DNA from: Thermogemmatispora tikiterensis
GTDB taxonomy: Bacteria > Chloroflexota > Ktedonobacteria > Ktedonobacterales > Ktedonobacteraceae
Reading direction: 5' to 3'
Length of the DNA: 64,000 nucleotides
NCBI RefSeq assembly: GCF_003268475.1
Contig: NZ_MCIF01000002.1
Location: forward strand, 3,318,478 to 3,382,477
The notes below the pieces were generated by a model, which worked only from the letters and a program-made list of their open reading frames with translations, had not been told where the DNA came from and did not search any database. Positions 33,485 to 54,529 of the stretch are shown one piece after another (the stretch's first letter is position 1; each line of letters begins with the position of its first letter). A program made the translations under genes and the position numbers.

Positions 33485-34579
33485 CTAGCTAAACAGGACA
33501 GGCATGGTCAGGTCACTGTAGGTGCCTTTCCTCCGCCCTTCCGGCCCATAGACCACAATCTGCCCTTTTTCTTCCAGCAGGCTCAGGCTCGACTTATACT
33601 TGAAAAATTCAGTGTCGGCCAGAACGAATTCTTCAATATCATCAACGGTAACTTTTTGTCCTCTAAAATGGTTATAAATCTTCTGAGCGAGAATCGCTGG
33701 ATCATCATTCTGGAGCAAGAATCCCTGTTCCAGACCAGTGCAGTCGGAGAACACAAAGTTACCCGTCGGGTCAACCTTCCACATCGCGCGCTTCATCTCC
33801 TTCATCCCCCGGCGATGCTTCGTGGCAAAGAAGAGAAAATAATGGGTCGTGTTCTTCCTATCACGCATACAGAATGAGCGCACGTAGCGAGCGCCTGCGA
33901 CAGTTAAAAGCTGCTGACGATAGAGGTCGTGCAGGCGCCGCTGGCGCGTCTGCGCATCGGGGGTGTCAAGGGTGATTGTCCGCCATGCAGTGGTGCCAAA
34001 GAGGGAGTCATAATGCTGCTGCTTGGTCCTGTAATCAAGATCCAGAAAACGATTGGTTCCCTGGTACATGAAGGTGATCAAGACCTCACAGCGAGGGCAA
34101 GCCATCAGGTCGCGAATAATAGACATGGGTGCGTGGGAATAGCCAAATGGATCAACAAAGACAAACATGGCATCATATTGCTCGCACCCGTTGGCCAGAA
34201 GGCTGGTCATCGCCTCTACAAATCTTCCCGTATATACCTGATAGGTCGCCGTGGGTGGCAGCGGCTGGCTCTGGAGATGGGTCCGGAGCTTCCGCTGCAG
34301 ATGAGCAGAGCGCTCGGGGTCCAGCTCCACGAAGAGAAACTTCACCCGGCCTCGCCGCAAGGAGTCGGCGCGATGCTGCTGATAGGCATCGATCATAATC
34401 AACGGCGAGCCGATTTCCCCGCCTACGTACTCCCCTGGACCAGCAAAACCATCGACCAGTAACCCTCTTCTCCCTTCGCGGATGAGGATGGGGAGCCAGG
34501 CATCCAGGTACTTGCGCAGAATGATATGCTTCGCACGCGTATGATCCTCCAGTTTCCAGATCACTGACTGCGGAGCCAT
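33485..34579 (-). CDS. tcmP: Three-Cys-motif partner protein TcmP
   Basis: A 364-residue member of the TcmP family (TIGR04474). Known: these proteins regularly neighbour a protein with a CxxxCxxC, radical-SAM-like motif; biochemical function is undefined. Seen: WKLEDHTRAKHIILRKYLDAW, LLVDGFAGPGEYVGGEIGSP (methyltransferase-like glycine-rich loop), FLFVELDPERSAHL, and FVFVDPFGYSHAPM, the family hallmarks. The C-terminal third has an HTH-like stretch. The upstream gene on the same strand is a radical SAM protein with CPVECGFC, so the partner is probably present. It has its own strong promoter at 34774-34802 and a ~190-base leader with an inverted repeat. Confidence 0.92.
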   Translation of the reverse strand: MAPQSVIWKLEDHTRAKHIILRKYLDAWLPILIREGRRGLLVDGFAGPGEYVGGEIGSPLIMIDAYQQHRADSLRRGRVKFLFVELDPERSAHLQRKLRTHLQSQPLPPTATYQVYTGRFVEAMTSLLANGCEQYDAMFVFVDPFGYSHAPMSIIRDLMACPRCEVLITFMYQGTNRFLDLDYRTKQQHYDSLFGTTAWRTITLDTPDAQTRQRRLHDLYRQQLLTVAGARYVRSFCMRDRKNTTHYFLFFATKHRRGMKEMKRAMWKVDPTGNFVFSDCTGLEQGFLLQNDDPAILAQKIYNHFRGQKVTVDDIEEFVLADTEFFKYKSSLSLLEEKGQIVVYGPEGRRKGTYSDLTMPVLFS

Positions 34580-34642
34580 TGCGCGCTCCTTTCCAGCTCG
34601 CCGTTCCTAAGCCGTCACTCGGGCCAGCCCAGTCCAGCCAGG

Positions 34643-34683
34643 CCGTTCTTCTTACCGCGCTTCCGGGACAGCGAGAAGAACGG
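34643..34683 (-). repeat. 10-bp inverted repeat in the tcmP leader
   Basis: CCGTTCTTCT (34643-34652) and AGAAGAACGG (34674-34683) with a 21-base spacer, between the tcmP promoter and its ATG. No T-run follows, so it is more likely an operator or a leader hairpin than a terminator. Confidence 0.6.
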
Positions 34684-34773
34684 TCGGCGCGGAGGTGGAA
34701 CCTTGCACCATTGGCCGCATCTTCAATTGTTCAATGAAAAAGGACGTTATTAGCCTACATCTATCTCTCTTAG

Positions 34774-34802
34774 AGTATACTCAATAACAGGTTCTTTGAC
34801 AA
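34774..34802 (-). promoter_or_regulatory. Promoter of tcmP
   Basis: On the minus strand TTGTCA (34797-34802), 17 bases, TATACT (34774-34779), each 5/6 to consensus, just after the radical SAM gene's stop at 34841. Confidence 0.75.
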
Positions 34803-34840
34803 GCGAAATCTCGCCAAATAATCAAGCAAGCACTAAAAAG

Positions 34841-36322
34841 CTACTGCTGGAGAGTGTGATTGATTACAGGCAGCGGGCTGCGCTGGAGCTGAGCACGGAG
34901 TCGATAGCTGATATGACAGGCGCAGGGCATGCTGCTGATCACTCCCGCCTTCAGAAACTGCAGGGCCTCGCGCGGGTCCGCCTTGCAGGGGGTGGTTTGC
35001 ACCTGCCCCAGGCCATAGCGCTCCAAGAGCAGCCGCACCCAGCGATAGAGCCGCTGTTGCCGCACCGCCGACGGACGATACTTGTGGGCCACCACCTCTG
35101 GCTCCAACTGACTGAGCAGGGGCCCCACCTGCTCCTCGGGCAAGCTCGCCCTGAGCACCCGCGGCATCTGCGGCGAGAAGCGCAGGATGTCCACGGTCAT
35201 CCGCTTGAGCCGCGGCCCCAGGATGTCGCGGATCTGGGCAAACAGCTCGTGGTAGGCCGCGCGGTAGCCTGCCACGGGAATGATCGGCCCCAGCCGGATC
35301 GTATGGTCCAGGGCCCCGTGGTCAATGGCCCAGGCCAGCCCACGCAGGCGCGCCTCCGGCGGGGCCCCGCCCGGTTCAAACTGCGCCGAGATCGCTGCCG
35401 GGTTCAGGCTGATCGCCACGAGCGCCAGCCGGCCAGCGAGCTGCAGGTAGGGTTCATAGACCCCCTTGGTCAGGAAGAACGAGACAATTCCACGCTCACT
35501 GGCCAGATCCAAGATGGTCTGTACCAGCGAGCCGCGCCCCTGCTCATCGACAAACCAGGGATCTTCCTCGACAGGGCCACCCAGTTCCGCCCAGTTGACC
35601 ACACTGCCCCGAGGCAGACGGTCCAGCTCGGGAATGACGTCTTCCAGATTGAGCGCCACGCTTTTCAGGCCCATGCCCTGCAGGCCGCGCAGATAACAAA
35701 AGCCGCATTCGACTGGACAGACGCCCTGCGCATAGTTGCCCCGCAGGAAGCCACGGATCGGCTCGGCCACGCGCTCCTCTTCTGGTGAGCGCGTGCCAGC
35801 GATCCAGGTCTGGCGCCCCCGGCGGTAAGCCACAATCGGGGTCCAGGCCCCGCAGGTGGTGCCAGCCCCGCCGACAAAGGGGGCAATGAATTGCGGGCGA
35901 CTCGCGCCGCCGCGACGGATCAGCAGCAGGAGACGGGCTTTGCGCTGGGCTTCGTCCTGCGCTGGCCAGAGCTGCCGATGCAGTGTCAGCACCTCGCGGG
36001 CCACCTCGCTTCGACTGCCGAGGCGCCGCAGATGGACGGCAGCGACTAGCGGAGCCAGCCGGGCCGCGGCAGCGCTCGCTTGCTCCTCTTCGTGCGGACT
36101 GTGGGCATGGAGGAGCAGGTGCGCCGGTCGCTGGGGGGCCAGCCGCTGGCGGTTGGAGAGCAGGCGCAGGGCCCGCTCACCCGCCACGCCCGTTGCGACT
36201 GCAGCATCCAGCGCCACCAGATCGATCTTAGCAAGTTGCCCCAGCATGGACGGCTCCCGGCCCCCATCCTTCTCCATAAACTTCGGCTGCATCTCACTCT
36301 TTTCCCAAGAAGGCTTCATCAT
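34841..36322 (-). CDS. Radical SAM enzyme, probable TcmP partner
   Basis: A 493-residue protein with the radical SAM cluster motif GVCPVECGFCYLRG (Cys about 202, 206 and 209 from the chosen start). It has a ~190-residue N-terminal region rich in Arg/Ala/Leu and a TIM-barrel-like remainder (SVVNWAELGGPVEEDPWFVD, IVSFFLTKGVYEP, LVAISLNPAAIS), resembling spore-photoproduct-lyase-like radical SAM proteins. These enzymes generate a 5'-deoxyadenosyl radical for difficult reactions. The start ATG at 36322 follows GAGGGA; a GTG 21 bases upstream is possible. A plausible promoter is TCGACT-18-TAGAAT (36432-36461). Adjacency to tcmP suggests joint action; the substrate is unknown, and DNA or RNA repair is only a guess. 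Confidence 0.85.
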   Translation of the reverse strand: MMKPSWEKSEMQPKFMEKDGGREPSMLGQLAKIDLVALDAAVATGVAGERALRLLSNRQRLAPQRPAHLLLHAHSPHEEEQASAAAARLAPLVAAVHLRRLGSRSEVAREVLTLHRQLWPAQDEAQRKARLLLLIRRGGASRPQFIAPFVGGAGTTCGAWTPIVAYRRGRQTWIAGTRSPEEERVAEPIRGFLRGNYAQGVCPVECGFCYLRGLQGMGLKSVALNLEDVIPELDRLPRGSVVNWAELGGPVEEDPWFVDEQGRGSLVQTILDLASERGIVSFFLTKGVYEPYLQLAGRLALVAISLNPAAISAQFEPGGAPPEARLRGLAWAIDHGALDHTIRLGPIIPVAGYRAAYHELFAQIRDILGPRLKRMTVDILRFSPQMPRVLRASLPEEQVGPLLSQLEPEVVAHKYRPSAVRQQRLYRWVRLLLERYGLGQVQTTPCKADPREALQFLKAGVISSMPCACHISYRLRAQLQRSPLPVINHTLQQ

Positions 36323-36431
36323 AGTTCCCTCTGTGGAACTCACACTTCATCGCTGTTCCCTTGATGGCTCCATACGACCAGGTACGCAGAGTGGCGCCAC
36401 AATGGAATTTTTGTTCGAGACTTATGCTTTA

Positions 36432-45812: not shown

Positions 45813-47504
45813 CTATCCAGTTTGGGCCAGTCCAGTAGCCAGAGGTGCCAGGCCCCCCTGAGCCAGCACATGCAGGGTAAAGCGAGCTGCATTGCTGGCA
45901 GCCTTGCGCTGCCGCCGCTCCTTGTTCACATGCTTGAAGCCATCGGCCCAGTCGGCAATGGCCTTGACGAGAATCCAGTCGACTTTGTGGTGCTGGGCCG
46001 CCGCGCACAGTCCAGCCCCTTCCATCTCGCCGCCGATGGCTTCCGGCTCCAGGGCCTGCAGCTGATCACGATACTCCTTGTCGTTAATCAGCTTCTCGCC
46101 AGAGAGCAGCAGGCCAAACTGGACCCGCTGCCCCGACCAGCTCTTGACACCACTCTTGAAGCGATCCAGCAGCAACGGCGAGGCGGTCACCCGGTCGCCA
46201 CGCAGGCGCACGCTGCGCTGGCCCTCGCGGGCAACTACAGCCTGTAGTTCATAGGCCAGGATCTGGCGCGCCACCAGAATGTCGCCAATGTGCTGCTCAT
46301 CAGGCTTGAGGCCAAAGGCGATGCCTACCATGATGACGGCCCGCGGCTGCAGATGACGGATGCCCTCGCTGACTGTAAGAAGGGAGCCAGCAACGCCACC
46401 TTGCCCCATTTCAGACTGCACCATGACCAGGCTGGTACCACTGACCTCACCCAGAAGATAGTAGGTCTTCTGGTCAATATAATATCGCTCTACCTGTGAG
46501 AAGAGCGCTAACACCGCCTGAGCTTCTATTTCGGTGACCGTCACCAGCAGTACATCGGCGTGCAGCCCGGGCTGCAAGGCACGTGCACCGCCAGTGAGCA
46601 GAGCCGCCGGCGGGGAGACCACACGCTGCTCGATAGCCTGCTGTGCCGCTTCGGCAGGAAAAGCGGCGCTCTGTGTTTCCTGCTCGGTCACAGTGACCGT
46701 CAACGCCTGTTGGGAGCGAAGCAGAGCTTCCAATTCAGCAAAGAAGTGTGTAGGCTGCCCGTAAGTTCCCCAGATCAGAAATGGGGCGCTTTCTCGATGT
46801 CGCGCTTCGATGATTCTGAGCAGCCGATCATCTTCAGCCGGGGGCTGGGGTGAAACATAATAAATGCTGCTGCGACTGGTCGTGCTCAGAAGCCGAAGAA
46901 TCGCTTCTTCCTGCGTAGGAGATCCGATGATGATGAGGTCCTCGTTAAGCTCGTGCTCCAGGATCTCACGCAGCGGAGAGGGAAATTCTAGCAAGTCAGG
47001 AAAGTCGGGAGCGAGAAGACCGGCCTCCAGGCTGCCAAAGAGCTTGAGGAGCAGGATCTCACGCCTACGCGCATGATCTCTCAGCTTTTCTTGAAGATAG
47101 ATTTCGCTCTCACGACCAAGGACGAGCTGACAGAGCTGCTCTAACCCTACGTTTTCGCTCACAAAGGCGCGTTCCAGCGAGGCATCGATGCCGCCTGTCA
47201 AGATCGTCGTAAAGTAGCCTTGCTTGCAGAGGCGAGCCAGAGCGCGATAGCCGATCAGGTTCTGAGATGCTTCCTGCAGAGCCAGGCCATACGCCAGCAC
47301 TCCGAGGCGATCATGCAGGCCAAGCTGCTGGAGATAAGCCCGCAAGTCGCTCCAGCTCTCGCTGTGACAGATCGCTTTGCGTACCTCGGCGTTCAGGCTG
47401 GCGGCGAGGGTGATTACAACGCGATAGGGCTGATCTCCCTGCCGTTTGCGCAGGTCGAGCAGCCGGGCCAGGTGCTTCAGAGCTTGTGGCACATCTGTTT
47501 CCAT
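45813..47504 (-). CDS. SIR2-like domain fused to nucleoside phosphorylase
   Basis: A 563-residue two-domain protein. Residues 1 to about 290 resemble, part by part, the SIR2-like protein at 53465-54529: LARLLDLRKR, GYFTTILTGGIDASLERAF, LLKLFGSL, LNEDLIIIGSP and YYVSPQ. The SIR2 TTNxD motif reads LTGGID, so the catalytic Asn is gone. Residues about 305-550 are a PNP/UDP phosphorylase-type domain: DVLLVTVTEIEAQAVL, QSEMGQGGVAGS, VIMVGIAFGLKP, IGGEMEGAGLCAAA (ribose-contact Glu) and ILVKAIADWADG. Such domains cleave nucleosides or nucleotides and serve as effectors in NLR-like conflict systems. AGAGAGGAGAAAG precedes the ATG. Last gene of the conflict operon. Confidence 0.85.
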   Translation of the reverse strand: METDVPQALKHLARLLDLRKRQGDQPYRVVITLAASLNAEVRKAICHSESWSDLRAYLQQLGLHDRLGVLAYGLALQEASQNLIGYRALARLCKQGYFTTILTGGIDASLERAFVSENVGLEQLCQLVLGRESEIYLQEKLRDHARRREILLLKLFGSLEAGLLAPDFPDLLEFPSPLREILEHELNEDLIIIGSPTQEEAILRLLSTTSRSSIYYVSPQPPAEDDRLLRIIEARHRESAPFLIWGTYGQPTHFFAELEALLRSQQALTVTVTEQETQSAAFPAEAAQQAIEQRVVSPPAALLTGGARALQPGLHADVLLVTVTEIEAQAVLALFSQVERYYIDQKTYYLLGEVSGTSLVMVQSEMGQGGVAGSLLTVSEGIRHLQPRAVIMVGIAFGLKPDEQHIGDILVARQILAYELQAVVAREGQRSVRLRGDRVTASPLLLDRFKSGVKSWSGQRVQFGLLLSGEKLINDKEYRDQLQALEPEAIGGEMEGAGLCAAAQHHKVDWILVKAIADWADGFKHVNKERRQRKAASNAARFTLHVLAQGGLAPLATGLAQTG

Positions 47505-47634
47505 CGCTTTCTCCTCTCTAGCGGCTCAACTGCCGAGCAGCCGCGTCTCACGCCGGCGTAAACAGATGGCCAGAGCAGAGCAGAGACGAGCGTGGAGCAA
47601 GGTGGCCTGCCCTCTCTGCGCTTCCTCTCTCAGG

Positions 47635-49194
47635 CTAGAATGTAAACAGCGTCCCATACTTGAGCACACGTAAAGCCTCCAGGCGCAGCACGTCAGGGAA
47701 GAGGGTTTGATAAATGGCACAATTTGGCGATCGGACATCGAGTCGTCCAGTCAGACGATAGGTCAGCAAAGGACAACCACCCGCACACCAATAACGCCAG
47801 CGGCAGGTCTGACAGCCCTCCTTCTCCTCAACAGGCAGGGCACGCAGCTCGCCAGAGCCAGAGGAGCGACGCACCGCCTCCAGCGGGTCCTCAGCTGCAA
47901 TGGTCGTAATCGTCTGCCCGAGCGCAGCATGACAGCCTGCCACCCCTCCGCGCTGATCGATCACCAGATAGTTGCGCCCCATGCCACAGGCGTAGCGAGA
48001 GGCCAGACCGGGATGGGTCCGATCGAGCAGCGAGCTGAACAAGCGACGACGCGGCAGACGCCTCTCGATCACCGCAAAGGCAGCTCGCATGCCCGCAATC
48101 ATCTCCTCTTCCTCAAATCGAAGATCATCAATATTAGCAGAACAATCGTGTTCGCGGTAGTAGCTCAAAGCAAAAGGAAGATCGCGCTCGAGCAAATAGT
48201 CCAGCAGGGCAGGCAGGCCAGCAAGGTTGCGCCGTGAGACGGTCACATTCACAGACGGAGGCCAACCTGCGGCCAGCAAGCGATTGAGAGCGCGCTCAAC
48301 GTAGGCGAACGAGCCTTGACCATGCCCAAAGGGGCGCTGCAGATCATGCTGCCGACCGAGGCCATCGAGCGACAGCATGACCCTGATATGGTGGTCCTTC
48401 AGGGCGGCCACCGCTCGCTCGCTGAGGGCCACTCCATTGGTGAGCAAGGAGGCGCTTACCTTGATCTGGGCCTCTGCCCCCAGAGCAAGAGCATAGTCGT
48501 GCAGAGCCAGCACCTGGCGGAGGCGCAATGTTGGCTCGCCACCGGCGTACTTCAGATGCACTGCTCGATAGCTGTGGCGCCGTGCGGACCGAAAGATGGC
48601 CTCGACGGCCCGTCTGGCGGTCTCCTCAGCCAGATGCTCGGAACTTTTGTGGACATAGCAATACTGGCAAGCCAGATTGCAAGCATTCGTGATGTGCAGC
48701 CAGGCGGAGAGGATCATGCCCTCCTCTTTCGGCCAGGAAGAGCCGTGCTGAGTCGGATCAGCCTGCACAGGTAGCAGAAAGCCCAGCCCGACCAATAAGC
48801 GCAGCAGCGAGAGCAGGCTTTCAGGGGGCACCCGAGAAAAGGCCAGGGCGGCTTCAGCGGGCGAGGCGGGCTGCTCAAAGGAGTGGAGCAGAGCCAGCGC
48901 CTCGCCATCCAGCACAGCCAGGTGCCCTGTTATCAGCTGCTCGGGATTGCAGATCAGCCAGCGCCCAGCAGTGCACTCGCTCTGATAGAGGGAAGCTGGT
49001 AGGCACAACTGCCCTTGCCCTACCTTAGAGCTGAGGCACTCCTCAGGCTGGTCCCGGCAGGAGAGCAGCGCCTCTAACTCTCTCCACCCCTGTGGGTCGC
49101 CAAGGCCACATTCACCGGTTTCGCTGCAATCGTCAGAGGTCCACGCCTCCGGAGAGTCTTTCCACACCGGATCAAGATCAACCCAGACATTCAT
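47635..49194 (-). CDS. Radical SAM/SPASM peptide maturase
   Basis: A 519-residue radical SAM enzyme. Seen: an N-terminal acidic extension (1 to about 65) with Cys 23, 29, 46, 53 and 64; a PqqD/RRE-like winged-helix region (about 65-145, GHLAVLDGEALALLHSFEQP); cluster motif NACNLACQYCYVH (about 173-180); AGGEPTL; and a SPASM tail with YACGMGRNYLVIDQRGGVAGC, then CQTCRWRYWCAGGC and a final Cys in SPNCAIY, enough for two auxiliary 4Fe-4S clusters. SPASM enzymes typically modify ribosomal peptides. No clear precursor gene is adjacent, though a 24-codon frame lies just upstream. AGGAGG precedes the ATG by 12 bases. Its place between STAND and phosphorylase genes is unusual. Confidence 0.92.
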   Translation of the reverse strand: MNVWVDLDPVWKDSPEAWTSDDCSETGECGLGDPQGWRELEALLSCRDQPEECLSSKVGQGQLCLPASLYQSECTAGRWLICNPEQLITGHLAVLDGEALALLHSFEQPASPAEAALAFSRVPPESLLSLLRLLVGLGFLLPVQADPTQHGSSWPKEEGMILSAWLHITNACNLACQYCYVHKSSEHLAEETARRAVEAIFRSARRHSYRAVHLKYAGGEPTLRLRQVLALHDYALALGAEAQIKVSASLLTNGVALSERAVAALKDHHIRVMLSLDGLGRQHDLQRPFGHGQGSFAYVERALNRLLAAGWPPSVNVTVSRRNLAGLPALLDYLLERDLPFALSYYREHDCSANIDDLRFEEEEMIAGMRAAFAVIERRLPRRRLFSSLLDRTHPGLASRYACGMGRNYLVIDQRGGVAGCHAALGQTITTIAAEDPLEAVRRSSGSGELRALPVEEKEGCQTCRWRYWCAGGCPLLTYRLTGRLDVRSPNCAIYQTLFPDVLRLEALRVLKYGTLFTF

Positions 49195-49203
49195 TCGTGC
49201 GTG

Positions 49204-49278
49204 TCACCTCCTGAAGAACTGAGTGATAACAACTATCACCAGCAGGATCGCACTACCAGATTTGCAGCGACAACTCAT
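49204..49278 (-). CDS. Possible 24-residue peptide upstream of the radical SAM gene
   Basis: A minus-strand ATG at 49278 opens MSCRCKSGSAILLVIVVITQ, then four more residues (FFRR) and a TGA inside the ribosome-binding site of the maturase gene. It has two Cys near the N-terminus and a hydrophobic core. No Shine-Dalgarno is visible. It could be a peptide substrate, a coupling leader peptide or chance. Low confidence. Confidence 0.2.
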   Translation of the reverse strand: MSCRCKSGSAILLVIVVITQFFRR

Positions 49279-49282
49279 GATG

Positions 49283-49331
49283 TCTGTGGGCCAGTAGAGA
49301 TCAGGACGGCAGAGGATCTTTGGCCCACAGA
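49283..49331 (-). repeat. 11-bp inverted repeat inside the conflict operon
   Basis: TCTGTGGGCCA (49283-49293) and TGGCCCACAGA (49321-49331) with a 27-base spacer, just after the STAND-TPR stop codon and 90 bases before the maturase ATG. No U-run follows on the transcribed strand. It probably forms an intercistronic hairpin affecting read-through or stability. Confidence 0.75.
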
Positions 49332-49340
49332 GCGCACCGG

Positions 49341-52082
49341 CTAGCCCGGGACACGCAACAGTCGAGCAACCTCCTCACAGGCCTGGTCTAATTCGGGATA
49401 GCGTTCTGCCAGACCCCGCTGTCGCCAGCCCTCGCGCACGCACTGGGCCACCTCGGGGACGCTTGCCAGCGGCAGAGCCAGCAGGTGCTCCAGCAAGCGG
49501 CGCTGCGCTTTTTGGTACTCCAAGAAATTATGGCGCGTCATCCAGGCACAGCTCTCGACATAGTGCGCGATCGCCTCCTCCCAACGGCCCTCCGTATAGG
49601 CCAGGTTCCCCAGGACCTCCTCGCCACGCCCCAGCAGCAAGCGGTAGCCCTCTTCCTCGGCGATGGTGCGCGCCTCCTGCCAGGCGGCCTGCGCCTCCTG
49701 GTGCCGACCCAGGTGGGAAAGCGCCTCCATCAGGTCGACCAGGCTGGTCGCCAGCTGGGCGCGATCCTGCACGTGGCGCGCATGCTCACAGGCGCATTGC
49801 AAGTGGGTCACCGCCTCCTCCCACCGCTCCTGCGCTGCGGCCACCCGCCCCTGATAGTACTGGCTGTTGATGAAGACCTCCTCATCAAAGCCGGTCACCA
49901 GCGCCTCAGCCTGGCGAAACAAGGCCGTGGCCTCCTCGAACTGTCCCTTCAGCAGAGCCACCTGCCCCAGGCGGTTATAGGTGGCTGCCAGGCCACTGCG
50001 ATAGCCCACATGGGCATAGCATTCGAAGGCCCGGCGGAAATGCTGCTCCGCCTGCACCAATTCCTCATGCTCCAGGTAAATCAGGGCCAGCGTGCTATGC
50101 GAGAGGCCGACCGCGCGCTCATCGAGCTGGCCCTGCTTCCAGAGTTCCTCCCGCACGCGCAGGCCCAGCAGACAGAGGCGCAGCGCCTCCTCGACCCGCC
50201 CCTGCAACCGATAGACATGCCCGATGCTATTGAGCAGATTGGCATACCAGGCCAGGCTGCCCCGCTGCTGATGATAGGCCAGCGAGGCATAGTAATAGTG
50301 GAGCGCCTCCTCCCACTGGCCCAGCCGGCGATAGAGATAACCGAGCTGGCCCTGTAACATACTGGCCCGTTCCTCATCCCCACGGCGCTGGGCCAGCTGG
50401 AGACACTGCTCATAGGCCTCGATCGCCTCCCGAAAGCGGTACAGCTGCAGCGCGCAGCGGGCCTGCTCATAGAGCAGTTCCCCTTGCTGGGCCTCCTGCC
50501 AGGCCGGATCGGCCTCCTCCTGCAAAGCCTGGAGCAGCAAGCGCGCCTGAGCGGGCTGTTCCTCAATGCGGAGCAAGCGCGCCTCCCACACCCGCAGTCG
50601 CCAGCGTTGCGGCGGCGTCAGCAGGGAGTCGAACTCGCGTACGGTCTCCAGCAGCGTGCGCGCGAAGCCGCTGCGCCAGCTGAGAAAGGCAGGCGAGAAG
50701 AGACGTTCAAACCACTGCAAGCCCTCCTCCAGGTCCAGCGTCAGCCGATGATAGAGCAGCTCCACCCGACTGGCCTGCCATTCTGCTTCCGCGAGCGACT
50801 GCTCTGCCTGCTGCTCATAGTAGCTAATCACAGCCCGGCTGAGCTCGCGGCGAAAGCGCCGATCGGGGTCCTGACGCTCCCAGCAATAGTGCACCACCAG
50901 CCGGCGCATCTCATCATGCAGTGCCAGCTCATCCCCCTCGCCGGCGGCGCGCACGAACGAGAGCTGCCGCAGGGTTGCCAGCCACTCCTCAACAGTAACC
51001 TGCTCGCCGGCCTCCGTGAGCCTGACCTGGGTCAGCAACCAGGAGAGAAGTGGAACCGACAACCGATGGTAGACATGAGCCAGCACCAGAATCAGCCAGT
51101 TGAGCGGGCGCTCCAAATCGTTAATGCGGACCACAAGCTGCTCCTCAAAGCGCCCTTGCGGGAAGGCCACCAATTCATCCAGCGTGAGCAGGCGCCTTGC
51201 CAGCAGATCACAGGCCAGTCCGACCAAAATAGGACGACCCGCCGTCAGCTCATAGAGACGCTCCATAGAATGAGCCTGGCGCTCTGCCGCCAGAATAGAC
51301 GCTTCTGAGTCGGCAGCGGCCCCGTTGGCCTCACCTGCGCCTGCCGAATCGGGCAGCTCAGCCAGCTCACGCGCCAGATAGAGGCGCACCTCAGCAGGCG
51401 AAAAAGGAGGTAGCGCCAGATCCAGCACCTCTTTCTCACGTCCATGCCATGTTGGATGCTGCCAATCCAGCGGATTGCGCCCCGCCAGGAGCACTTTGAC
51501 TTGAGGCAGGCCATAGCGCTCGGGGAAGAGCTGTCCCAGGCCCAAGACCGCTACCTGGGGACTGCGCTCGACCAGCTCAAAGGTATCAAAGACGAGCAAG
51601 AGCTGCGGCTCCTTCTCAGGCAAGTGTGGCAGCAATTCCTGCGTATCGCGCGCCAAAGCCTCCGAGAGGCTATCACGAATGCGGATATCGGCCACATCTT
51701 TCTCCGGGTAGAGGCTACTGAGATAGCCCTGGGAGGCAAAGCTTTCCAGAGTCTCAGCGAAAGCTCGCGCCTGCCAGCGCGGATAGGCTGCCTGGAGCCG
51801 CTCAACAACTCGCCGTGCGATCACCAGGCGATCACGATCGGCGACACGGAAGAAATCCACCTGGACAACGGCCAGATGGGGAAAGCGCTGTCGCGCCAGC
51901 GAAACACAGGCACGCAGAAACCAGGTCTTCCCAATGCCGCCCCGACGAGCAGGGTCCGGCTCGGAATCATGAACAGAGAGAATCCAGGGAGCGTCGGACT
52001 GGACGTTCGCCAGCCAGTCCAGAAAAAGAGAAAGCTCACGATCTCGTCCGAGAAACGTTGCGGGTACCCCTAGGCGTTCCAT
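49341..52082 (-). CDS. STAND-type NTPase with TPR array
   Basis: A 913-residue NLR-like protein. Seen: FLGRDRELSLFLDWL (family entry), P-loop RRGGIGKTWFLRA (about 48-58), Walker B QLLLVFDTFELVE, sensor VLLAGRNPLDW, GRPILVGLACDLL (GxP-like), and a winged-helix region (about 320-400). From about 500 to 890 follow roughly ten TPR-like helical pairs (for example LGYLYRRLGQWEEALHYYYA and LGQVALLKGQFEEATALFRQ). In STAND proteins TPRs sense a trigger and the NTPase oligomerises to activate an effector. No fused effector is visible, so separate effectors in the operon are inferred. GAGGGAAG precedes the ATG; 17 bases separate it from the upstream ATPase gene. Confidence 0.9.
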   Translation of the reverse strand: MERLGVPATFLGRDRELSLFLDWLANVQSDAPWILSVHDSEPDPARRGGIGKTWFLRACVSLARQRFPHLAVVQVDFFRVADRDRLVIARRVVERLQAAYPRWQARAFAETLESFASQGYLSSLYPEKDVADIRIRDSLSEALARDTQELLPHLPEKEPQLLLVFDTFELVERSPQVAVLGLGQLFPERYGLPQVKVLLAGRNPLDWQHPTWHGREKEVLDLALPPFSPAEVRLYLARELAELPDSAGAGEANGAAADSEASILAAERQAHSMERLYELTAGRPILVGLACDLLARRLLTLDELVAFPQGRFEEQLVVRINDLERPLNWLILVLAHVYHRLSVPLLSWLLTQVRLTEAGEQVTVEEWLATLRQLSFVRAAGEGDELALHDEMRRLVVHYCWERQDPDRRFRRELSRAVISYYEQQAEQSLAEAEWQASRVELLYHRLTLDLEEGLQWFERLFSPAFLSWRSGFARTLLETVREFDSLLTPPQRWRLRVWEARLLRIEEQPAQARLLLQALQEEADPAWQEAQQGELLYEQARCALQLYRFREAIEAYEQCLQLAQRRGDEERASMLQGQLGYLYRRLGQWEEALHYYYASLAYHQQRGSLAWYANLLNSIGHVYRLQGRVEEALRLCLLGLRVREELWKQGQLDERAVGLSHSTLALIYLEHEELVQAEQHFRRAFECYAHVGYRSGLAATYNRLGQVALLKGQFEEATALFRQAEALVTGFDEEVFINSQYYQGRVAAAQERWEEAVTHLQCACEHARHVQDRAQLATSLVDLMEALSHLGRHQEAQAAWQEARTIAEEEGYRLLLGRGEEVLGNLAYTEGRWEEAIAHYVESCAWMTRHNFLEYQKAQRRLLEHLLALPLASVPEVAQCVREGWRQRGLAERYPELDQACEEVARLLRVPG

Positions 52083-52099
52083 AGTACGCTTCCCTCACC

Positions 52100-53425
52100 C
52101 TAGTGTTCGAGGGCTTGCAGCCCTGTAAGCATGTCCTGGGCATGTTGCCCCAGGGCCTCTAGCAGCTCTTGGTCTTGACGAACTTCTTCCACAAATTGCA
52201 CGCGAGCCTCAGCGGTCTCCCAAGACAGAGTCGCCAGTAGCTCCCGGATTCCCTCAGCCAGCGCCGCAGATTCCAGGCTGAAAGCACTATGATAGAGCCA
52301 TTCGCGCAAATAACGGATACGGTCGGAGCCATTGACGCGCCCAGCCAGGCGCTGGTTAAAGGTAGCCAGCCAGCGGTGGAGCAAGGCAAACTGCTCAGGC
52401 TGCTCAATCTGCAAGGCCAGCAAGAAGAGCCAGCGCACCGGCCCCTCAACCGCGTAGCCGGCACGGTCCAGGTGCCAGCGCACGACCTCTGTCCTGTCGT
52501 TCAGCTCACGAGGCAAAAAGAAATAGGCCAAAGGGCTTTCACGCGCCCACTCAGGAGCAAACTGCTCAATCAGTTCTTGCAACATGAGAAGATTGAAACG
52601 GCGAGGCACCGAGAGTAGACGTAAGAGCCTCTCATAGGCGGAACGCTCCTCCGCCGGCAGCTTGTGCAGAACTCCCTGACGAACGACTCGCTCAATCAAG
52701 AGCTGGAGCAACTGGAGGCGATCAGCGGGCTGACGAGGATCAAGACCGCCACGGATGGCCTCGGTGAGAACCTCCATCGCCAGAGGATAGCCCCGCGTCC
52801 AGGAGAAAATCAGCTCCCGCACCTCGGCATCCAGTGGCAGCCCCACCTTCTGCAGATAAACATCACAGCTCGGACGATCAAGGGGACCGAGCTCCAGCAC
52901 CGTTACCTTCCGTGCGACGGAACGCTCCCGCTCGAAGGAAACCAGACGCGGAGACGCCAGGACCACAAAGAGCGTATACTCCTTCAACAGCTCACGCAGC
53001 AGAGTTTCCAGCCAGCGCACCTGGCGCTCATTACCGGCATCCACCGCATCAACTAGCAAGACCGCCCGCCCTCGCTGGGCAAGGAGACGCAATGCCTCCA
53101 CCGCCCGCTGCAGCCCAGGACCAAGCATCTCCGAGCTGTCCATTTCTGCCCTGCTCAGGTTAACCCGATAGCGCTGCACCTGCTCGACGATTTGGCGCTC
53201 CAGCAGACTCTCCCCCCGCCCGGCTTCAGCCCAAATAAACGGCACATCCGTCGCTTGACAGCGTTGTTGAACCTGACGGAGCAGCGCCGTCTTACCGATG
53301 CCACGCACTCCGCACAGCTCCACAACAGGCGTCCGCAAGAGCCGCTGCCGGTCCTGCAATGTCTGCAGCGCCTCATCAATGAGATGTAACTCGAATTCTC
53401 GGTTCACAAACAGTTCGCCTTCCAT
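52100..53425 (-). CDS. STAND-type ATPase without repeat domain
   Basis: A 441-residue P-loop NTPase. Seen: FVNREFELHLIDEAL at the start, P-loop ELCGVRGIGKTALLRQV, Walker B AVLLVDAVDAG (second acid replaced by Ala at the usual DD position), sensor FVVLASPRLV, VLELGPLDRPSCDVYLQKVGL and TRGYPLAMEVL (the GxP motif of STAND proteins), then a helical winged-helix-like tail to the end. No TPR or WD repeats follow, unlike the next gene product. GGGAG lies 8 bases upstream of the ATG. It sits 39 bases after the SIR2-like gene. Probably works together with the STAND-TPR protein. Confidence 0.88.
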   Translation of the reverse strand: MEGELFVNREFELHLIDEALQTLQDRQRLLRTPVVELCGVRGIGKTALLRQVQQRCQATDVPFIWAEAGRGESLLERQIVEQVQRYRVNLSRAEMDSSEMLGPGLQRAVEALRLLAQRGRAVLLVDAVDAGNERQVRWLETLLRELLKEYTLFVVLASPRLVSFERERSVARKVTVLELGPLDRPSCDVYLQKVGLPLDAEVRELIFSWTRGYPLAMEVLTEAIRGGLDPRQPADRLQLLQLLIERVVRQGVLHKLPAEERSAYERLLRLLSVPRRFNLLMLQELIEQFAPEWARESPLAYFFLPRELNDRTEVVRWHLDRAGYAVEGPVRWLFLLALQIEQPEQFALLHRWLATFNQRLAGRVNGSDRIRYLREWLYHSAFSLESAALAEGIRELLATLSWETAEARVQFVEEVRQDQELLEALGQHAQDMLTGLQALEH

Positions 53426-53464
53426 GCCAGATCTCCCGAATCACTATGCGCTACAGTGAAAAGA

Positions 53465-54529
53465 CTAGTCTTCCCGAAGAAGCAGCCGCTGCAATGAGCC
53501 TAACTGCTCCCTTAGCATGGACAGCTCAGAGGTGACTAGCTGAAAACACTGCTCTGTTTGCTGCTGAAGCGAGCTGAGTTGCATCAGGGTAGTCTGAAGC
53601 ATTTCTTGTGTCTCACGTCTCTCTCTCTGCGAAATTTTATATTCACTATTTATTTTACGCAATTCGCTAAGAATATCAACGAAGTTTCTTATATTGGTTG
53701 GCATCGATGATTTCAGATGCCAGAAGAGCGCCTTCAGAAAGTTATCATAGTGCCCATCCCAGCCAGTGAGATAGAGCGCCTGGCGAGCGTTGAAGACACG
53801 GGCAAGGCGCGACTCTGCAGGCGGCACATCTTCATTGACAAACCAGGTTGAGCTATGTCCCCCATCAAGAGGGATCAGATCGATCAGCTCGGCATCCCAG
53901 ACAGGATCAAGGCCGATGACGAGGATGTCGCTCCCCAGCACCTGCTGGAGATGCTCCTTGAGCCTGGCCTGCCGATCGAGATAGGAACGCTGACGCCTGG
54001 CATCATAGACGCGAGCCACCAGATCCCCGAATACCTTGATCACGCGGCAGAGCCGTCGCTCAGGATGCTGCAAACGCTGCTCATAGCTCCGCCCCGGGAT
54101 GAAGACCTCATAGTGCTGCCCCTCCCTGATCCCTGCCTGGTTGAAGGCTTGCTCAAGAAGATCGTCGATATTCGTGGTGATAATTTCGCTAAAATACTCC
54201 TCCTTGACCAGATCTGCCAGGCAAAGGTCAGCATCAGTGACTGTAACATCACGCAAGGCTGCCTGGAAGATAGAATCAAGATCGCGTTCGCTAAAAGAGT
54301 GCTCGTTCAAGACGCGGTAGCATTCGTCAAAGGCAGCGGGCCTGCTCAGGCCTTGCAGACTGCGCTCGCTGAAGCCCATGATCATCTCTTGAAAGGTCGA
54401 ACTCAGGCGGTAAAAGGCACCAGCCCGCGCCCCTAGCACAAGCACAATCCCGGAGCCACCTTGCTTGCGAATGTCTAGCAGCTTGGCGATCTCAGGGATG
54501 CTAGACTCACTGGAATCTCGTCGGGGCAT
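53465..54529 (-). CDS. SIR2-like domain protein (degenerate active site)
   Basis: A 354-residue protein with a SIR2_2-like NAD-binding fold. Seen: IVLVLGARAGAFYRLSS in place of the usual GAG-S loop, EYFSEIITTNIDDLLEQAF (TTNxD motif with the Asn present), RVIKVFGDL where catalytic SIR2 proteins have a His (K-x-HG), SDILVIGLDPVWDAEL and TWFVNED. The last ~80 residues are a predicted coiled coil (YKISQRERRETQEMLQTTLM and onward, Gln-rich). Loss of the catalytic His and altered loop suggest ligand sensing rather than NAD hydrolysis, though a variant active site is possible. First gene of the operon; promoter at 54850-54878. Paralogous to the N-terminal domain of 45813-47504. Confidence 0.82.
   Translation of the reverse strand: MPRRDSSESSIPEIAKLLDIRKQGGSGIVLVLGARAGAFYRLSSTFQEMIMGFSERSLQGLSRPAAFDECYRVLNEHSFSERDLDSIFQAALRDVTVTDADLCLADLVKEEYFSEIITTNIDDLLEQAFNQAGIREGQHYEVFIPGRSYEQRLQHPERRLCRVIKVFGDLVARVYDARRQRSYLDRQARLKEHLQQVLGSDILVIGLDPVWDAELIDLIPLDGGHSSTWFVNEDVPPAESRLARVFNARQALYLTGWDGHYDNFLKALFWHLKSSMPTNIRNFVDILSELRKINSEYKISQRERRETQEMLQTTLMQLSSLQQQTEQCFQLVTSELSMLREQLGSLQRLLLRED

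What the first reader, a model, noticed from the sequence alone, without database searches (positions are those of the whole stretch)
33485..36322. TcmP beside a spore-photoproduct-lyase-like radical SAM gene
TcmP proteins are known for partners with a CxxxCxxC motif but no assigned function. Here the neighbour has CPVECGFC and a full-length radical SAM-like barrel, larger than phage Gp37/Gp68-type partners. tcmP has a separate strong promoter (34774-34802), so the two need not be produced in equal amounts.
Basis: partly seen in the sequence, partly recalled or inferred. Interest (0 to 1): 0.58.

Follow-up and report, generated by a model that had tools for sequence, protein, structure and literature searches.

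The report
TcmP with a swapped radical-SAM partner
A heat-loving soil bacterium carries a two-gene cassette in which a methylase-like protein found in many phage-defence gene clusters has exchanged its usual radical-enzyme partner for one related to a DNA-repair enzyme, which makes the unknown job of this pair easier to test.

Summary
34841-36319(-) encodes a 492-aa radical SAM protein (CPVECGFC); 33485-34579(-) encodes TcmP (TIGR04474, E 5e-60). Its core is a remote relative of spore photoproduct lyase (SPL), but SPL's hydrogen-donor Cys is Val in 8 of 8 sequences, and four further invariant Cys (156, 445, 466, 468) suggest a second metal site. The family is rare: 8 of 400 Chloroflexota genomes, all Ktedonobacteria, 10 copies. 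Six copies have an intact tcmP directly downstream, one a truncated tcmP, two run off contigs, one (on an integrase-bearing element) has none.

PADLOC lists that pair as candidate defence system PDC-M30; some copies adjoin restriction-modification genes. So this is PDC-M30A with its B subunit replaced. TcmP models as an RlmJ-like base methyltransferase keeping RlmJ's K18, H19, S100 and D164, plus a C-terminal winged helix. Most likely the pair modifies nucleic acid: TcmP methylates, the radical enzyme acts on the same target. Target, product and anti-phage activity are untested. The radical SAM model is poor (pLDDT 51).

The parts
34841..36319 (-). SPL-like radical SAM gene, 492 aa (ATG start at 36319; an upstream GTG at 36343 keeps the frame open)
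35126..35743 (-). SPL-homologous core, residues 193-398
   Evidence: hhalign 98.7%, E 2.5e-16
35696..35719 (-). radical SAM cysteine motif CPVECGFC, C201/C205/C208, invariant in 8 of 8 homologues
35852..35854 (-). invariant C156, possible ligand of a second metal site
   Evidence: role is inference
34916..34987 (-). C-terminal stretch with invariant C445, C466, C468 outside the SPL-like core
   Evidence: role is inference
34774..34802 (-). promoter-like TTGTCA-17-TATACT in the 261-base gap upstream of tcmP
33485..34579 (-). tcmP, 364 aa: RlmJ-like methyltransferase domain plus C-terminal winged helix
34526..34531 (-). TcmP K17-H18, matching RlmJ K18-H19 (motif X)
34427..34453 (-). TcmP motif I, DGFAGPGEY, matching RlmJ DTHAGAGRY
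34403..34411 (-). TcmP G57-S58-P59, matching RlmJ G99-S100-P101
34142..34153 (-). TcmP motif IV D143-P-F-G, in place of RlmJ D164-P-P-Y
33536..33715 (-). C-terminal winged helix, residues 289-348 (Pfam GMT-wHTH, below the curated cut-off here)
   Evidence: E 3.3e-4; model secondary structure

Best explanation
A partner-swapped form of the two-gene TcmP/DUF5131 system (PADLOC candidate PDC-M30). Shown: the pair and its conservation; TcmP's membership of TIGR04474/PDC-M30A; the swap of the DUF5131 slot for another SPL-like radical SAM protein. Supported by models and motifs: TcmP is an RlmJ-fold AdoMet methyltransferase with a complete cofactor and catalytic residue set and a winged helix that may bind nucleic acid. 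Inferred: both proteins act on the same nucleic acid. TcmP methylates a base amino group, with D143 positioned by K17 as in RlmJ. The radical SAM protein makes a 5'-deoxyadenosyl radical that abstracts hydrogen from that base or from the new methyl group and converts it. It is not spore-photoproduct repair. The most likely benefit, also inferred, is in conflict with phages or other mobile DNA.
For: Linkage in three unrelated chromosomal settings: one conserved site in the genus and unrelated flanks in Ktedonosporobacter and Ktedonospora, at 63-65% protein identity. Co-occurrence over 47 class genomes: TcmP over cut-off in 7 of 8 with and 6 of 39 without this radical SAM gene, Fisher p 2e-4, not corrected for kinship. 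Low dN/dS for both genes in Thermogemmatispora (rSAM 0.08-0.11, TcmP 0.14-0.31). The usual partner is DUF5131: 7 of 8 viral-contig loci, 4 of 7 other TcmP places over cut-off in the class, 3 of 3 annotated records opened. PADLOC names TcmP PDC-M30A and DUF5131 PDC-M30B/M41B. DUF5131 proteins match NCBIfam radical SAM mobile pair A (E 5e-16 and 5e-20), and the DUF5131 model matches a classical SPL-like radical SAM protein, so one radical SAM lineage has replaced another. TcmP tree: the rSAM-linked set lies beside DUF5131-linked Ktedonobacterial TcmPs. TcmP model pLDDT 83.7; best PDB matches are RlmJ/DUF519 chains, Z 15.6-17.6, about 210 residues at about 3 A. TIGR04474 itself matches E. coli RlmJ weakly (E 0.0012). 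RlmJ K18, H19, S100, D164 (PMC3814359, passages) correspond to TcmP K17, H18, S58, D143, each invariant in 12 of 12. Setting: beside type I and type III restriction-modification genes (L097, L099), between repressor and integrase of a Gordonia phage, listed next to Hna in S. meliloti (PMC12445080, passages).
Against: No activity, substrate, complex or anti-phage effect has been shown for either protein here. The rSAM model is poor. The rSAM alignment has about three independent lineages, so 'invariant' is weak. TcmP motif IV is DPFG, not DPPY, so an adenine-N6 target does not follow. One rSAM copy has no tcmP, and T. aurantia has lost the TcmP methylase motifs but kept the rSAM frame, so the two are separable. 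In Thermogemmatispora the locus sits between metabolic genes, not in a defence island. The winged-helix match is below the cut-off for this TcmP. Profile comparison of TcmP with RlmJ alone gives only 12%; the rSAM against DUF5131 gives 2.5% and 0.4%.
Confidence: 0.6

Rival explanations
1. A housekeeping RNA-modification pair: TcmP and the radical SAM protein modify rRNA or tRNA, with no role in conflict.
For: RlmJ is an rRNA methylase (PMC3814359, passages); tRNA methylases Trm1 and Trm5 are also among the matches. The locus is at one chromosomal site in the genus.
Against: Absent from 39 of 47 class genomes; portable between unrelated sites; TcmP elsewhere is on plasmids, phages and beside restriction genes; T. 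aurantia lost the TcmP methylase part.
Confidence: 0.2
2. A toxin-antidote arrangement in which TcmP makes a harmful modification and the radical SAM partner (DUF5131 or this one) reverses it.
For: The partner is found alone: an element-borne rSAM copy without tcmP, T. aurantia with rSAM but broken tcmP, DUF5131 over cut-off in 6 of 47 class genomes that lack TcmP over cut-off.
Against: The 437-aa TcmP forms in L089 and L091 have no such partner in view. No toxicity data.
Confidence: 0.15
3. The radical SAM protein is a DNA-lesion repair enzyme like spore photoproduct lyase, and TcmP helps or regulates it.
For: SPL is the closest solved relative; Ktedonobacteria sporulate (recalled).
Against: The SPL H-donor Cys (C141 in B. 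subtilis, PMC5368176, passages) aligns to V250 in 8 of 8; about 190 N-terminal and 95 C-terminal residues lie outside the SPL-like core; scores are far below the SPL family cut-offs.
Confidence: 0.1
4. Neighbours by chance.
For: Six of the eight genomes are one genus with one ancestral site, so adjacency there counts once.
Against: Same order and strand at two further unrelated sites in other genera.
Confidence: 0.04

Closest known systems
TcmP/DUF5131 (phage Gp37/Gp68) pair; PADLOC candidate PDC-M30 (PDC-M41B also matches DUF5131)
   Same: TcmP of the same family; a radical SAM-type partner next to it; portable cassette.
   Different: Partner is 492 aa, CX3CX2C, SPL-like, with extra N- and C-terminal regions and four extra invariant Cys; DUF5131 is about 245 aa with CX6CX2C.
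Spore photoproduct lyase and SPL family (TIGR04070, TIGR03886, PF20903)
   Same: Core homology (residues 193-398), CX3CX2C followed by Y, and a TK motif.
   Different: No H-donor Cys, scores far below the NCBIfam cut-offs, extra regions, partnered with TcmP.
RlmJ, 23S rRNA m6A2030 methyltransferase (DUF519)
   Same: Predicted fold; K-H, DxxAGxGxY, GSP and D-P motifs in the same order.
   Different: Motif IV DPFG instead of DPPY; added winged helix; two-gene setting, often on mobile DNA.
Radical SAM mobile pair proteins (TIGR04471/TIGR04470)
   Same: DUF5131 proteins match pair A; radical SAM proteins of mobile DNA by name.
   Different: That pair is two radical SAM proteins, not radical SAM plus methyltransferase (from the family names; not examined here).

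Membership tests
TcmP (TIGR04474) | whole-protein score over the curated cut-off (53 bits) | tested here: met
   203.6 bits
TcmP (TIGR04474) | neighbouring three-Cys-motif gene | tested here: met
   CPVECGFC gene directly upstream, same strand
PDC-M30 (PADLOC) | component A (TcmP) | tested here: met
   PDLC04567 E 8.4e-64
PDC-M30 (PADLOC) | component B (DUF5131) | tested here: not met
   the neighbour matches no PADLOC model at E 0.1; own genome has no DUF5131 over the cut-off
PDC-M30 (PADLOC) | protects against phage | not testable with these tools
   a computational candidate in PADLOC; no experiment seen
Spore photoproduct lyase | score over family cut-off (TIGR04070 400 bits; TIGR03886 437.55; PF20903 27) | tested here: not met
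   23.0 and 14.6 bits; window protein has no Pfam match; relative L016 26.7 against 27
Spore photoproduct lyase | radical SAM CX3CX2C motif | tested here: met
Spore photoproduct lyase | H-donor cysteine (C141 in B. subtilis) | tested here: not met
   V250 in 8 of 8 by alignment to PDB SPL
Radical SAM superfamily | CX3CX2C motif and homology to a known radical SAM enzyme | tested here: met
   the barrel itself is not modelled with confidence
DUF5131 (PF07505) | score over the curated cut-off (28.9) | tested here: not met
   no Pfam match at E 0.1
RlmJ / DUF519 | motif IV DPP[YF] | tested here: not met
   DPFG, D143-P-F-G invariant in 12 of 12
RlmJ / DUF519 | cofactor and catalytic residues K18, H19, S100, D164 | tested here: met
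   K17, H18, S58, D143 by alignment; residues from PMC3814359

The most novel reading that the evidence does not exclude
A writer-plus-radical-tailor immunity module: TcmP installs a methyl group on a nucleic-acid base and the radical SAM partner converts it to a new hypermodified base, as TYW1 acts on m1G made by a methylase in wyosine synthesis. The mark either protects the host or disables invading nucleic acid. The interchange of two radical SAM lineages beside one methylase would mean that the radical step is the fixed logic of a widespread, unstudied system.
Probability: 0.2. Interest if true: 0.78.

Novelty: new variant of a known kind. Interest (0 to 1): 0.52.

Why it matters
TcmP and DUF5131 are found on plasmids, phages and chromosomes, and I found no paper that studies their function. 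A natural swap of the partner for a relative of a mechanistically known DNA-acting radical enzyme, beside a TcmP that looks like an RlmJ-type methyltransferase, gives direct hypotheses: TcmP methylates nucleic acid, DUF5131 is a radical SAM enzyme, and both touch the same substrate. A genus with the pair and one member with a natural tcmP truncation give ready comparisons.

Tried and rejected
Partner swap to a DNA methylase: the second own copy (L017 8110-9504) is followed by an N4/N6 DNA methylase gene and an integrase. I considered that the methylase replaces TcmP, but close homologues of it (three loci, 83-84% identity) lie without the rSAM gene, so I do not claim a second swap.

Viral and wider homologues of the rSAM: none in viral contigs or phage records; in plasmids only four SPL-family matches at 28-34%. 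Of these I opened three, and none has an annotated tcmP within about 3 kb. The genome-contig scan used patterns from one protein, so distant relatives outside Ktedonobacteria may be missed.

rSAM model: pLDDT 51; its fold matches (mostly triosephosphate isomerases, Z under 8) are not used. Direct homology of this rSAM with DUF5131: not detectable by profile comparison; the link rests on both matching SPL-like radical SAM families. Similar Cys-to-TK spacing (77 residues in 8 of 8 rSAM; 80 to 95 in 14 DUF5131) is noted only as suggestive. Mutual exclusion of rSAM and DUF5131 among TcmP-bearing genomes is not significant (2 of 7 against 5 of 6, p 0.10); one of those two (G009) is a classical radical SAM gene that scores just below the DUF5131 cut-off as a whole protein. 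RsmJ as a TcmP relative: rejected. Relaxed selection on the T. aurantia tcmP remnant: not seen (dN/dS 0.24). PDB sequence search with the TcmP profile gave only unrelated weak matches.

L100 (viral tcmP) has no partner in my ORF list, which kept only non-overlapping ORFs, so one may have been missed. It was left out of the TcmP alignment because its translation held a stop.
Full report
What is there. The window is part of a Thermogemmatispora-type genome (Ktedonobacteria, Chloroflexota): homologous loci of the named species T. aurantia and T. carboxidivorans are among the nearest. On the minus strand a 492-aa gene (34841-36319) is followed, after 261 bases, by tcmP (33485-34579). TcmP scores 203.6 bits against TIGR04474, cut-off 53. 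The upstream protein has CPVECGFC and matches no Pfam model at E 0.1 and no PADLOC or PHROGs model.

The radical SAM protein. Profile-profile comparison with three SPL-family proteins gives 98.7%, E 2.5e-16 over residues 193-398, and a profile search of the PDB returns only five SPL sequences (E 2.8e-4 to 1.3e-3). It is not an SPL: its scores are far below the NCBIfam cut-offs, and the Cys that donates hydrogen in SPL (C141 in B. subtilis; PMC5368176, passages) aligns to V250 in all eight homologues. Seven Cys are invariant in the eight: 201, 205, 208 (the motif) and 156, 445, 466, 468. The last four could hold a second cluster; this is inference, from about three independent lineages. The structure model failed (pLDDT 51.2), so the barrel itself is not shown.

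How widespread, and is it linked to TcmP? The profile finds the family in 8 of 47 genomes of the class and in 8 of 400 of the phylum, plus one fragment: all six Thermogemmatispora and two other Ktedonobacteria. There are ten copies. Six have an intact tcmP directly downstream: G000 (window), G002, G003, G009, G012 and G001, where contig ends divide the locus. G005 (T. aurantia) has only TcmP residues 163-363, through a deletion that removed the gap and the first 162 residues. G004 and the second G001 copy run off their contigs. The second copy of this genome (L017) has no tcmP; it lies between a helicase-loader gene and a DNA methylase and integrase, so probably on a mobile element, and the G001 fragment belongs to the same element (98.7% over 4.3 kb). 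Ktedonospora has two tandem tcmP genes. In Thermogemmatispora the locus has one conserved site; in the other two genera the flanks differ. TcmP over cut-off is in 7 of 8 genomes with and 6 of 39 without the rSAM gene (Fisher p 2e-4, not corrected for kinship). dN/dS between the window locus and its Thermogemmatispora counterparts is 0.08-0.11 for the rSAM and 0.14-0.31 for TcmP, the last value from a very close pair.

The usual partner. In the annotated plasmids and the phage that I opened (3 of the 59 records with TcmP matches) the neighbour is a Gp37/Gp68 (DUF5131) gene. In viral contigs 7 of 8 TcmP loci have an adjacent CX6CX2C gene. In the class, of seven other TcmP places over cut-off, four have DUF5131 adjacent, one is at a contig end and two (437-aa forms) have none in view. 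All 14 DUF5131 proteins aligned have C-x6-C-x2-C. Two that I scanned match radical SAM mobile pair protein A, and the DUF5131 model matches SPL-like radical SAM proteins. So DUF5131 is most likely an SPL-like radical SAM protein too, and here one such lineage stands in for another. In the TcmP tree, six of the seven rSAM-linked TcmPs group together (86/97) beside DUF5131-linked TcmPs of the same class; the second tandem TcmP of Ktedonospora groups with a DUF5131-linked one.

TcmP itself. The model (pLDDT 83.7, pTM 0.84) matches RlmJ/DUF519 chains best: ten of the first ten rows, Z 15.6 to 17.6, about 210 residues at 2.9-3.5 A; the next methylase has Z 14.5 and Trm1 14.4. TIGR04474 also matches E. 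coli RlmJ weakly (E 0.0012). Aligned to RlmJ, TcmP keeps K18-H19, the DxxAGxGxY loop, G-S100-P and D164-P; in RlmJ K18, H19, S100 and D164 bind AdoMet or act in catalysis (PMC3814359, passages). All four residues are invariant in 12 of 12 TcmPs. Motif IV ends in FG rather than PY, so the target atom may differ; that Trm1, an N2-guanine methylase, carries DPFG is recalled and not tested. A C-terminal winged helix is predicted.

Setting and likely role. PADLOC lists TcmP and DUF5131 as candidate defence proteins. Pairs lie beside a type I system (L097), a type III system (L099) and a HEC-05 gene (L090), and between repressor and integrase in a Gordonia phage. In S. meliloti TcmP is listed next to the defence gene hna among genes up-regulated with it (PMC12445080, passages). 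From these I infer a nucleic-acid modification module used in conflicts, with TcmP as methylase and the radical SAM protein as second step. The analogy of a radical SAM enzyme acting after a methylase is wyosine synthesis (TYW1 on m1G; mechanism recalled, only listings and abstract starts seen). None of this activity is shown.

Regulation. TTG[TC]CA-17-TATA[CA]T is conserved upstream of tcmP in four Thermogemmatispora loci, and no terminator-like site lies in the gap. TcmP can therefore plausibly be transcribed both with and without the rSAM gene. Amounts are unknown.

Verdict. A real, conserved, partner-swapped variant of a known candidate system. No paper found here studies TcmP's function: searches found the family only in single mentions (passages of PMC12445080 and PMC12429752 read; PMC7387457 and PMC5463345 seen as listings only).

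Noticed in passing
window 45813-54529 (-): A run of genes resembling a conflict cluster: SIR2-like protein (53465-54529), NTPase (52100-53425), NTPase-TPR protein (49341-52082), a second radical SAM protein (47635-49194) and a protein with a phosphorylase-superfamily (PNP_UDP_1) domain (45813-47504).
   Followed up: partly
L017 3972-12942 (own genome, C2:4588971-4597941): Integrase-bearing stretch with helicase loader, an orphan copy of the same radical SAM gene (92% identical) and an N4/N6 DNA methylase; part of it is in G001 at 98.7%.
   Followed up: partly
L012 7391-7993: T. aurantia: a deletion leaves only TcmP residues 163-363 while the rSAM frame stays open, a natural loss of the TcmP methylase part.
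   Followed up: yes
L016 7587-9835: Ktedonospora formicarum has two tandem tcmP genes downstream of one rSAM gene (the second about 34% identical to the window TcmP).
   Followed up: partly
G007 (10 DUF5131 matches, 8 of them long): One Ktedonobacterial genome has at least eight DUF5131 genes and no TcmP match.
   Followed up: no
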